A stretch of DNA of 64,000 nt, from NCBI GenBank assembly GCA_951812895.1, contig OX638333.1, positions 300,366-364,365 of the forward strand, given 5' to 3'. The notes beneath the pieces are model-generated. The model saw nothing but the letters and a program-made list of their open reading frames with translations. It searched no databases and had not been told where the DNA came from. Positions 34,411 through 37,901 of the stretch are shown here, in pieces. Every line of letters begins with the position of its first letter. The first letter of the stretch is position 1. Source of the stretch: an uncultured Roseovarius sp. (lineage in GTDB: Bacteria; Pseudomonadota; Alphaproteobacteria; Rhodobacterales; Rhodobacteraceae). The position numbers and the translations under genes are program-made.

Positions 34411-36009
34411 TTAGCCATGATCCGTAACAAACACGCCGGTTTGGATCAACCAGGGCAAGGTTTTGGCGTCAAAACGGGTGACCTGCTCATTGATCCAACC
34501 CCGGGTCAGCTTTTCTGGCAATCCCAAGGCCGCCGCTCGTTGCGGTGTCAGTTTTGTAAGCTGAACGGCAATGTGTTCGGTACGTGCTGGCATATCGACA
34601 CAATCGGTGGCCCACGCAACCAATCCATTCATGAAACTTAGCCGCACCGCCGCCCCCAATGCCGGGGCACTGACATAGGTTTTGCCCTCTTCCATATGGC
34701 GCGCTTCCAACAAAGCCAGACTTACCCGTTCCGCAAAACGCAACTGTCCCTGCGGTTCCTGCTGAACATCGGCGTAAGGGCGCAAAATTGTCTGCAAAAC
34801 TTCACCCGCCAACAAATCATGCATCGCTGACAGCGCTTCGTCCCTGTCAAAGCCTGACAGACGAGCATCGGACAGAATTTCCGCAACGCTCATCTTACCC
34901 CCATATGCGCACTCCATCAGGACGGCAATCAAGGGCGTATCCGTGGTCAAATGACGTCGGCCGATGCTGAACGTGCCGGACATTATGATTTCGGCACCAG
35001 TGCGGGTTGGCGCAACGCGCAGGTCGTCGAACAACGTGCCCCGCTCGCTCTCCGCCACAGGTTCCCTTGCCCGGATGAACGTGTCCCACCGAAAGGATTC
35101 ATTTCGCACGAGACTCAGCCGCGCCATCTGTTCTTCCACGCTTTCTGTTTGCTCAACATGCGCGGAATGCCGTGACGATACGATGTTACGAAAATTATTC
35201 CGGTAGAGCCGCGCAGAACCCGAATAACGCAAACCCAGATCGGCGAACCCACTTGCCACATCGGCAAAATACTGTGGTTCGTAACAACCGTTGAAAAAGT
35301 CATGCACCAGGTAACGCGGGTCGCGTTTGGCCAGGTTATCGACATATGGTCCAGCTGCAGAATTTTCCCGGAAGAATGCAGTGTTGCGCTTTCGCAGAGC
35401 GACGATTTGTTTCAAGGCGTGGCGCGCCTTGTCCACCGATCCACCCTTAACACCTGCGGAAAACACATGCATCATCTTCCAGATCGGGATCAGGTGCGAT
35501 GCTCCGGGCAGCGTATTATAGCACAAGTAAACCATCCCACCCGGTTTTAGCAGTTTGTCGATCGCTGCGCGGATTTCAATGCGGATCTGCCCGCCAACCC
35601 AACTGTAAACCCCCTGCATCGCTATGAAATCAAATTGCGGCAGGTCATGATGGTCCAATTCGCTGAACGGAGCGGTGATGAAAGTCACGTTTGACAGGCC
35701 AGCCTGTTCTGCCACGGCCTGCGCTGCCCGGATGTGGTCTGGATTAAAATCAACACCATAGAACTGTGCGTGGGGATAGGCCGCAGCCAGCAGATTAATG
35801 GTAACGCCATTCCCGCACCCCAGATCGCAATAGGTAAAGGGCATGTCCGGTGACGGCATGCGAAAGCCATTCAGCCGTGCCACATAAGACAGCAGCAGAG
35901 GCGACATGTACTTGTAATAGCTCCAGGTATACGGCGTATCGAGTACGTAACCCAATTGCCCCCGGCGGACTTGGCCTTGCTTCATCAAAGTATGATTTAC
36001 ACCGCCCAT
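34411..36009 (-). CDS. SAM-dependent methyltransferase with PF10119-type regulatory region
   Basis: A 532-residue protein. The class I SAM-binding motif I is YCDLGCGNGVT at residues 60-70, followed by YGVDFNPDH and a GxY motif region (MQGVYSWVGG). The C-terminal 300 residues resemble the methyltransferase regulatory / winged-helix part seen in rickettsial protein-lysine methyltransferases (PKMT). It overlaps the 3' end of the kinase-dioxygenase fusion gene by 13 bases on the same strand, so the two are likely made together. The substrate (protein or small molecule) is unknown. Confidence 0.8.
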   Translation of the reverse strand: MGGVNHTLMKQGQVRRGQLGYVLDTPYTWSYYKYMSPLLLSYVARLNGFRMPSPDMPFTYCDLGCGNGVTINLLAAAYPHAQFYGVDFNPDHIRAAQAVAEQAGLSNVTFITAPFSELDHHDLPQFDFIAMQGVYSWVGGQIRIEIRAAIDKLLKPGGMVYLCYNTLPGASHLIPIWKMMHVFSAGVKGGSVDKARHALKQIVALRKRNTAFFRENSAAGPYVDNLAKRDPRYLVHDFFNGCYEPQYFADVASGFADLGLRYSGSARLYRNNFRNIVSSRHSAHVEQTESVEEQMARLSLVRNESFRWDTFIRAREPVAESERGTLFDDLRVAPTRTGAEIIMSGTFSIGRRHLTTDTPLIAVLMECAYGGKMSVAEILSDARLSGFDRDEALSAMHDLLAGEVLQTILRPYADVQQEPQGQLRFAERVSLALLEARHMEEGKTYVSAPALGAAVRLSFMNGLVAWATDCVDMPARTEHIAVQLTKLTPQRAAALGLPEKLTRGWINEQVTRFDAKTLPWLIQTGVFVTDHG

Positions 36010-37901
36010 TCAACAAGCTTACGGGCATCTGAAGGCAGGTTGCTCACCGTATTGTTCGAGATATCCATCGGGTCCTGTTTCTTAAAATTCTTGTGGTCAC
36101 GATACCACGGCCGTTGATAAATCAGACTGACCACGGGACGAATGTGCTCACTGTTGTTTGCCATGCCCTGATGAAAGACATTGCCATCCATCAAATAGCA
36201 AGACCCGAGATCGGCAACGGGGTCCTGCGAGGGCATATCACCAACTTCGCTGCTGCGCAGCGTCTGGCTCCGCTTGATAATTCGTGTGCCACCCGTTTCA
36301 TGGTTCAGTTGGATCAGCGGCACCATCACCGAAACAAGGAACGGCGGCAGGTCGCGCCGATCCAGTTCCTCGAACAGCGGTGGGTTGTCGCGGTGCAGCT
36401 TTTGTTCCTCAGCCCCCGGCATCGAGGCAACGGCAGTCATGCTGCCCAGGATCGCATTTCGCCCAAGCAGTTTGCGCAAGATCGGCAGCACCAGCGGTGC
36501 TGCAAAAAAGGCGGGATCGGCAAAAGCGCCGGACATTTTGGGGGTCACCATAAAGCGTTTGTCGCCCACGCGCAGCGCACCACCCTGTTCAATCGCCTCG
36601 CGGTAACGATTGCTTTGCTCTTTAAAGGCCTGTTGACAGGCCGCGATCAGGCCCCGAGGAAACACGTCGCGCAACATCAACGCACCATAGCGGTGGTAAA
36701 TCTCGGCACATTCGTCGGCGCGGCCTGAACGAAGGCGGTTCTTGCTGCGCTCATCTTCAGAAAATTCTACATAAGGAAACACATCCGGGTCATCCAGGAC
36801 CTCCTTGTCCCCCTCGGCCCGGGCCGCCGCCTTTGCCGCAAGAGTGGCCTTTTGCTCGGCAATCCCGTCTAGACGCTGGAACAACGCACCCAGATCCGCC
36901 ATCCGGCGACGGGCGTTACCGGCAATCGACTTGCGTGAAGACGTACTTGAGATCCGATGGTGGGCAAAACCACAGATGTAGTAGAACACGCCCGCCAATG
37001 CCGAGGCCGGAAGCGCTGCGCGCAGCTCTGCCCGATCATATGCGCCATCCTTTGACAAAACGTCCAAATACCGGTCAATCGCTTGTTTATCCCGGGTCGC
37101 CTGACCACGGGCAATATTGACTGCAGTCGTGGCAAAATGGATACGAAGGCACCCGGAAAACTGTGCGTGCAGAGACATGCCCGGAGGCCCCGCAACCGCA
37201 TCATCCCAATCAAAAATGCAAAAATCACCCTTGGCGCGGCGCGCAATGTTTTTCACCCGCAAATCACAATGGTTAATTGTTTGGGCAATTTGTTCAGCTG
37301 GTTCAAGAAATGCCCGGACCTGCGCGGCACGCGCCTGCAGCGTTTCGCGATAGGAGCGTACTTCTTCGGGCGGCATAAAATGAAACGGATTACCGGGCAG
37401 GTTTGACTTGTCCTCACCAGCCACCCCATCATCGAGAAGCTCCAGAAACCGGTCAAACAGCCCCTGAGGCGTCACCGCGGGCAAACCACGCAATAGTGCT
37501 GGCTCTTTGCTCGCAGCGGATTGAATAGCAGCGTATTTCGACAAAATAGCCTGTTTGTCAGTAGTACCGGGTCGTTGCGTCAACTGCTCTCCTTGGTGAT
37601 CATGGTATAGATAAAACCCCTCATCCGGGGCCGCGGCCAGCATCTTTGGCATCACGGGTTCGAACCGCTTTGACATCGCCCTTAACGCCTGCCCCGCCTC
37701 CGGCGTAGCACCGCGTACAAGTTTCAGAAAATACCGCGCACCTTTATACCGCAAACGATACACCCGAGCCCAAGGGTGGGCCGAGATCCGACGCACATCG
37801 GCACCCGGAAGGATTCCAGCCGCCCAATCAAGCGCTATAGTATCGGTGTCTTTAACTGGTGACATGGAACCACCTGTAAATGCGGATTTTTCAACGCCCA
37901 T
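35997..37901 (-). CDS. APH-type phosphotransferase fused to a PhyH-type dioxygenase
   Basis: A 634-residue fusion protein. The N-terminal half has a kinase-like fold of the aminoglycoside/choline phosphotransferase (APH) group: a Lys in YFLKLVRG, the catalytic loop NHCDLRVKN with Asp213 and Asn218, and Mg-binding FDWDD with Asp231. The C-terminal half is a PhyH-like Fe(II)/2-oxoglutarate dioxygenase: HRD at 503-505, distal His577 (VFHQG) and Arg588 eleven residues later. Both active sites look complete. The ATG at 37901 has GAGGT seven bases upstream; 37865 is an alternative. Long upstream open sequence overlaps hisB and is rejected. The pair of activities in one chain is unusual. Confidence 0.8.

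What the first reader, a model, noticed from the sequence alone, without database searches (positions are those of the whole stretch)
34411..37901. APH-type kinase fused to a PhyH-type dioxygenase, overlapping a methyltransferase
Seen in the sequence: one 634-residue protein carries both a complete APH-type catalytic loop (NHCDLRVKN, then FDWDD) and a complete 2-oxoglutarate oxygenase set (HRD at 503-505, His577, Arg588). Its stop overlaps the start of a SAM methyltransferase with a PKMT-like C-terminal region by 13 bases. Established: APH-fold kinases include hydroxylysine kinase, and PhyH enzymes hydroxylate small substrates. Inference: the fusion could hydroxylate a substrate and then phosphorylate the new hydroxyl group, with the methyltransferase acting on the same target. 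I know no described two-step enzyme of this make-up.
Basis: partly seen in the sequence, partly recalled or inferred. Interest (0 to 1): 0.78.

Follow-up and report, generated by a model that had tools for sequence, protein, structure and literature searches.

The report
Fused hydroxylase–kinase with lysine methyltransferase partner
A bacterium carries one protein that joins a hydroxylating enzyme to a phosphate-adding enzyme, and the five genomes found to have it all place a protein-methylating-type enzyme right beside it; together they probably decorate a protein or peptide in steps, which has not been tested.

Summary
One frame (35997-37901, minus) encodes an APH-type kinase joined to a PhyH-type 2-oxoglutarate oxygenase. 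[quoted passage not shown] It is no assembly join: the same fusion plus methyltransferase occurs in four other genomes (three named Alphaproteobacteria, one unnamed relative of Ahrensia), at 31-50% identity per half, with all ten catalytic positions checked kept. The unit is rare, and 28 same-genus genomes lack it beside hisB. One Rhodospirillaceae genome has the two enzymes as adjacent separate genes, its kinase ending in a PqqD domain; another member of the oxygenase clade lies in a lasso-peptide-like cluster. This points to a peptide or protein substrate. I infer a two-gene modification unit: hydroxylate, phosphorylate, methylate. The substrate is unproved: no third gene is shared by the five loci, the link to RTX/adhesin genes is weak, and the window's methyltransferase has Gln where PKMTs have an AdoMet-binding His. 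The boldest reading is a bacterial route to phospho-hydroxy-trimethyllysine, known from diatom silaffins. Four text searches listed no paper on this fusion. New variant of known kinds; interest 0.6.

The parts
35997..37901 (-). APH-PhyH fusion gene, 634 aa (622 aa if it starts at 37865)
   Evidence: recurs in L083, L084, L085, L098
37179..37769 (-). APH-type kinase domain (Pfam match, residues 45-241): K60, H211, D213, N218, D231, D233 invariant in 5 of 5 fusions
   Evidence: predicted APH fold
36135..36698 (-). PhyH-type 2-oxoglutarate oxygenase domain (Pfam match, residues 402-589): H503, D505, H577, R588 invariant in 5 of 5 fusions
   Evidence: predicted fold nearest KanJ
34411..36009 (-). 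OM-PKMT-family methyltransferase gene, 532 aa, overlapping the fusion by 13 bases
   Evidence: fusion-linked copies are one side of a branch, support 94/98
35518..35835 (-). AdoMet-binding core of the methyltransferase (Pfam Methyltransf_31 match, residues 59-164)
35071..35319 (-). MethyTransf_Reg domain (residues 231-313)
35614..35616 (-). Codon for Gln132, at the place of the AdoMet-binding His of PKMTs; His in the other four fusion-linked copies

Best explanation
A conserved two-gene unit that modifies a protein or peptide. The PhyH half hydroxylates a side chain (Fe(II), 2-oxoglutarate, O2). The APH half phosphorylates a hydroxyl, most simply the one just made, from ATP or GTP. The OM-PKMT-family enzyme, whose gene overlaps or abuts the fusion gene, methylates lysines of the same target, perhaps a secreted or surface protein. 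Shown: the fusion, its company with the methyltransferase in five genomes, the catalytic residues, the split two-gene form with a PqqD domain, and the predicted folds. Inferred: the substrate class, the order of steps, and that all three activities meet on one target.
For: The same fusion and methyltransferase side by side in 5 of 5 fusion loci. Ten catalytic positions invariant in 5 of 5. Split form in L087/G1040: PhyH gene followed by an APH kinase with a C-terminal PqqD domain, plus a separate PqqD gene. A member of the same PhyH clade (91/93) lies in a lasso-peptide-like cluster with PqqD and an Asn-synthase/lasso-cyclase-like gene. The methyltransferase is of the family whose characterised members methylate surface proteins: OmpB, and AtaA by KmtA (PMC11784438, abstract and section 6). 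An RTX protein lies beside the fusion in L098 and an adhesin-like protein in L085.
Against: No third gene is shared by the five loci and no shared short frame was found among 118, so no target is named. The window, L083 and L084 show no RTX frame. RTX frames near fusion-free methyltransferases, 7 of 24 distinct loci, do not clearly exceed 0 of 12 comparison loci (Fisher p 0.07; genome loci alone 3 of 19, p 0.26). The L098 RTX gene is set off by a terminator-like stem (one found, 0.5 expected). The own genome has no real gene with GKx triplets by the pattern used. The fusions carry no PqqD match. Solved relatives of both halves are mostly small-molecule enzymes. The window methyltransferase has Gln132 for the AdoMet-binding His.
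Confidence: 0.42

Rival explanations
1. Small-molecule tailoring: the fusion hydroxylates and phosphorylates a metabolite (amino acid, choline-like amine, aminocyclitol or phosphonate), and the methyltransferase methylates the same compound.
For: PhyH half closest in sequence profile and fold to KanJ, which acts on kanamycin B. The kinase fold lists methylthioribose, macrolide and choline/ethanolamine kinases first. In L083 the unit follows genuine TmpA and TmpB, which break down trimethylaminoethylphosphonate. In the window it lies beside a solute-uptake ABC transporter.
Against: The methyltransferase belongs to a protein-lysine-methylating family. PqqD on the split kinase. TmpA is not found in G1048 and G1049, two other fusion genomes. 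No transport or catabolic gene is shared by all five loci.
Confidence: 0.33
2. Joined but not serial: both halves modify the same target class, but different residues or different steps, and the fusion only fixes their ratio.
For: The low pTM (0.54) of the full model gives no firm arrangement of the two active sites. The linker is poorly conserved, 23-31% identity. The same pair works as two proteins in L087.
Against: Fusion and adjacency of a hydroxylase with a kinase are most simply explained by one making the other's substrate (inference).
Confidence: 0.15
3. A decaying or idle accessory unit in this genome.
For: Rare in the samples searched; not within about 1.5 kb upstream of hisB in the 28 same-genus genomes that have hisB; Gln132 in the methyltransferase.
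Against: Open frames with all ten fusion positions kept; 41% identity of the methyltransferase to the L098 copy over 515 columns.
Confidence: 0.05

Closest known systems
OM-PKMT family (Rickettsia PKMT1/PKMT2; KmtA of Acinetobacter sp. Tol 5)
   Same: Profile match over model positions 24-318; MethyTransf_Reg domain
   Different: C-terminal part not aligned; Gln132 for the AdoMet-binding His in the window copy; coupled to a hydroxylase-kinase, of which the KmtA paper has no mention by the terms searched
PhyH-family oxygenases (KanJ, AndA and others)
   Same: HxD...H...R set; Pfam PhyH; nearest fold KanJ
   Different: Fused to a kinase; own clade apart from the sugar-transporter-linked PhyH proteins in the tree
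APH-fold kinases, incl. choline kinase and hydroxylysine kinase (the latter recalled)
   Same: HxDxxxxN and D(W)D motifs; Pfam APH; predicted fold
   Different: Substrate unknown; no strong match to a named subfamily; hydroxylysine kinase itself was not compared
RiPP peptide kinases (LxmK of class V lanthipeptides, TvaE)
   Same: APH-like kinases linked to peptide modification (family names); the split relative has PqqD
   Different: LxmK match only 12.9 bits, cut-off 315, over the catalytic-loop region; no precursor peptide found
Diatom silaffin modification (phospho-hydroxy-trimethyllysine)
   Same: The chemistry would need the same three activities (PMC4557024, passages)
   Different: A eukaryotic system; no sequence link was tested

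Membership tests
OM-PKMT family | AdoMet-binding and dimerisation region similar to RpPKMT1/RtPKMT2 | tested here: met
   E 1.6e-38 to PKMT2, model positions 24-318
OM-PKMT family | Asp and His that bind AdoMet (Asp74/His118 of RtPKMT2) | tested here: inconclusive
   Asp kept (D87); His is Gln132 in the window, His in L083, L084, L085 and L098
OM-PKMT family | Methylates lysines of an outer-membrane protein | not testable with these tools
   needs mass spectrometry
PhyH oxygenases | HxD...H iron triad and 2-oxoglutarate-binding Arg | tested here: met
   H503, D505, H577, R588 in 5 of 5; Pfam above cut-off
APH kinase superfamily | Lys in N-lobe, HxDxxxxN loop, metal-binding Asp | tested here: met
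   K60, H211, D213, N218, D231 in 5 of 5; Pfam above cut-off
APH kinase superfamily: hydroxylysine kinase | Acts on hydroxylysine | not tested
   no hydroxylysine kinase sequence was compared
Class V lanthipeptide kinase LxmK | NCBIfam model score above cut-off | tested here: not met
   12.9 bits, cut-off 315
RiPP cluster | PqqD/RRE and a precursor peptide gene beside the modifying enzymes | tested here: not met
   No shared short frame among 118 at the five loci; PqqD seen only with the split form and with L094

The most novel reading that the evidence does not exclude
The unit makes O-phospho-hydroxy-(tri)methyllysine on a bacterial surface protein or peptide: the OM-PKMT-like enzyme methylates lysine, the PhyH half hydroxylates it, and the APH half phosphorylates the new hydroxyl. 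That would be a bacterial set, in two genes, for the zwitterionic residue known from diatom silaffins. Lysine- and glycine-rich stretches in the adhesin-like and RTX proteins beside two of the five fusions (L085, L098) are compatible with this.
Probability: 0.12. Interest if true: 0.87.

Novelty: new variant of a known kind. Interest (0 to 1): 0.6.

Why it matters
If the two halves work in series, this is a single-chain hydroxylate-then-phosphorylate enzyme coupled to a protein lysine methyltransferase. It would extend the few known cases of bacterial surface-protein lysine methylation (PMC11784438 calls its own the second) to a compound modification, in a small, testable two-gene system. If the residue is phospho-hydroxy-trimethyllysine, it would offer model enzymes for a silaffin modification; the review consulted names a silaffin kinase, but the words methyltransferase and hydroxylase do not occur in its main text.

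Tried and rejected
Assembly join or frameshift: rejected. Phage or plasmid cargo: no match in phages; in plasmids 11 records, none covering 80% of the query, all 11 in the PhyH half; none in viral contigs by three scans. TmpAB as the obligate partner: rejected; TmpA is found in G000, G1047 and G1051 but not in G1048, G1049 or G1050 (3 of 6). A GKx-repeat substrate in the own genome: the one pattern match lies in a frame antisense to a 409-aa frame. A common lysine motif in RTX relatives of the other fusion genomes: none seen by eye in the proteins printed. A PqqD-like part in the methyltransferase: hhalign probability 1.0%. A shared precursor peptide: no cross-locus match among 118 short frames. 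Foreign base composition: G+C of the unit is like its surroundings. The first genome-contig scan, with the single protein, found no relative among 19 pattern matches, so such scans miss members and all counts of occurrence are lower bounds.

Rows dropped: L052 (same plasmid as L060) and a second methyltransferase in L056 (9569-11167) were left out of the tree; L085's methyltransferase was trimmed by 40 residues there.

Full report
What is there. The methyltransferase at 34411-36009 overlaps it by 13 bases. The genome is one contig of 4.54 Mb with one copy. Upstream, divergent, is hisB followed by hisH. Downstream, same strand, is an ABC transporter: solute-binding protein, an ATPase best matched by UgpC below its cut-off, a UgpA-like permease (also below cut-off) and a DUF2160 protein, probably the glycerol-type Glp system (name recalled). 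The start at 37865 (622 aa) fits the homologues better than that at 37901.

How rare it is. A single-sequence search found the full-length fusion only in the window's own genome in three samples, each of which includes or was listed with that genome: 60 genomes of genus and class (9 of 60 matched at E 1e-3, the other eight in the PhyH half only), 390 of the order (3 of 390 at 1e-10, the other two in the PhyH half) and 398 of the phylum (4 of 398 at 1e-10, the other three in the PhyH half). The sets overlap. The kinase part alone in 289 genomes of the class gave 5 genomes at E 1e-3: the own one, one strong (G1040, 2.8e-22) and three weak, near 1e-3.

The key relatives. An alignment of the two PhyH sequences then found 5 relatives among 185 pattern matches in the species-representative collection: three fusions, each with the methyltransferase directly downstream (L083 Paracoccaceae MAG, L084 Ahrensia sp. 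R2A130, L085 Pseudorhodobacter MAG), the split pair L087, and a lone PhyH in a gammaproteobacterial MAG (L086; no kinase match in its stretch). A profile of the fusions found a fifth fusion plus methyltransferase in the set of 121 genomes around Ahrensia (2 of 121 matched, the other being Ahrensia itself), with the same 13-base overlap as the window (L098); and in 121 around the Pseudorhodobacter MAG only that MAG and a lone PhyH, G1086. The gene spacing differs: 4-base overlap in L083, 6-base gap in L084, start unsure in L085.

Conservation. Over the five fusions K60, H211, D213, N218, D231, D233, H503, D505, H577 and R588 are invariant, while identity to the window is 31-37% in the kinase half, 23-31% in the linker and 42-50% in the oxygenase half. 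In a tree of 29 methyltransferases (5 fusion-linked, 24 not) the five are one side of a branch (94/98; 93% of 200 bootstrap trees), a fork below the program's star threshold, with some long branches, L085 among them. In a tree of 18 PhyH proteins, the five fusions, the split pair, L086, L012 and the lasso-cluster member L094 share one side of a branch (91/93), but the fusions are not a clade within it (two changes needed; one origin in 8% of bootstrap trees). So one fusion event is not shown from that tree.

Surroundings. In a comparison of frames of 70 aa or more, only the fusion and the methyltransferase are shared by all five loci; ABC-type ATPases recur in three of them. L098 is cut short by a 6.65 kb contig. 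L083: TmpA and TmpB upstream (E 7e-161 and 2.9e-98 to the solved enzymes). L085: an adhesin-like protein with tandem repeats and a Hint domain, divergent, beginning with five GKx triplets. L098: an RTX protein just upstream on the same strand (Pfam 25.2 bits, cut-off 23) with lysines in a Gly/Ser-rich stretch; a terminator-like stem lies between it and the fusion (1 found, 0.5 expected by chance). For methyltransferases without the fusion, 7 of 24 distinct loci (8 of 25 counting one plasmid twice) have an RTX-like frame, against 0 of 12 comparison loci; Fisher p 0.07, and for genome loci alone 3 of 19, p 0.26. The comparison loci were not matched, and the five plasmid loci were picked by me from 39 records before their neighbours were seen. 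The strict RTX motif found none in the four fetched fusion loci or the window. A pattern for three GKx triplets has one match in the own genome, in a frame antisense to a 409-aa frame, which speaks against a GKx substrate there.

Folds. The full model (mean pLDDT 76.7, pTM 0.54) matches KanJ best (E 4.2e-13). The kinase part alone (pLDDT 88.7, pTM 0.87) matches methylthioribose, macrolide and choline/ethanolamine kinases first, with TvaE and LxmK also in the 50 listed. TM-scores in that list are about 0.40-0.67 with high rmsd, so the substrate cannot be read from the fold. The low pTM of the full model gives no firm arrangement of the halves.

The methyltransferase. Model positions 24-318 align with Rickettsia PKMT2. 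Characterised members of this family methylate lysines of surface proteins (OmpB; AtaA by KmtA; PMC11784438, abstract and section 6 read). The AdoMet-binding His named there (His118 of RtPKMT2, chain position 119 by my count) is Gln132 in the window and His in L083, L084, L085 and L098. This may lower activity.

Locus history. Of 29 other genomes of the genus searched, 28 have hisB; in these hisH is kept, and neither the fusion, the methyltransferase, the solute-binding gene nor the next ATPase gene matches within the roughly 1.5 kb fetched upstream. Base composition is ordinary. Whether the unit arrived here or survived here was not tested.

Mechanism. The best-supported reading is a peptide- or protein-modifying unit: PhyH hydroxylates, APH phosphorylates, the OM-PKMT-like enzyme methylates. 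The substrate class rests on three indirect lines: PqqD on the split kinase, the lasso-like cluster around a clade member (L094), and the methyltransferase family. Against it stand the kinship to small-molecule enzymes, the TmpAB neighbours in one genome, and the lack of a fixed target gene. I give it 0.42 and the small-molecule rival 0.33.

The bold reading. [quoted passage not shown] The three activities here would suffice for that residue. No sequence link to diatoms was tested; probability 0.12.

Literature. Searches of the open-access library for PhyH with phosphotransferase, fusion and hydroxylysine (2 papers), PhyH with APH, fused or bifunctional (31, 10 listed), PqqD with PhyH, kinase and RiPP (27, 12 listed) and phospho-hydroxylysine terms (19, 15 listed) listed no paper whose title or abstract start describes this fusion. 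Only the listings were seen for these; subscription journals and preprints are not held.

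Noticed in passing
L094 1307-11011 (G1086:C45): A lasso-peptide-like cluster in an unnamed relative of the Pseudorhodobacter MAG: Asn-synthase/lasso-cyclase-like gene, PqqD, PhyH, a methyltransferase, Asp/Asn hydroxylase-like gene, HprK-like kinase, glycosyltransferase-like gene, sulfotransferase and GMC oxidoreductase. No precursor peptide was sought.
   Followed up: partly
window 35614-35616: Gln132 of the methyltransferase stands where the four other fusion-linked copies and Rickettsia PKMTs have an AdoMet-binding His.
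   Followed up: partly
L085 3676-5691 and 10051-13815: Adhesin-like protein beginning with five GKx triplets and ending in a Hint domain; and a 1254-aa frame with no Pfam or NCBIfam match near the same fusion.
   Followed up: partly
L098 5270-6652: RTX protein (cut by the contig end) with lysines in a Gly/Ser-rich stretch, directly upstream of a fusion, with a terminator-like stem between.
   Followed up: partly
L083 7035-8770: TmpA and TmpB (choline-phosphonate breakdown) lie directly upstream of the fusion in the Paracoccaceae MAG; a TmpA (67% identical) is elsewhere in the window's genome.
   Followed up: partly
L065, L066, L067: A different PhyH group sits beside sugar ABC transporters and LacI regulators in Caballeronia, Azospirillum and Skermanella plasmids, suggesting a sugar-linked oxygenase family.
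   Followed up: no
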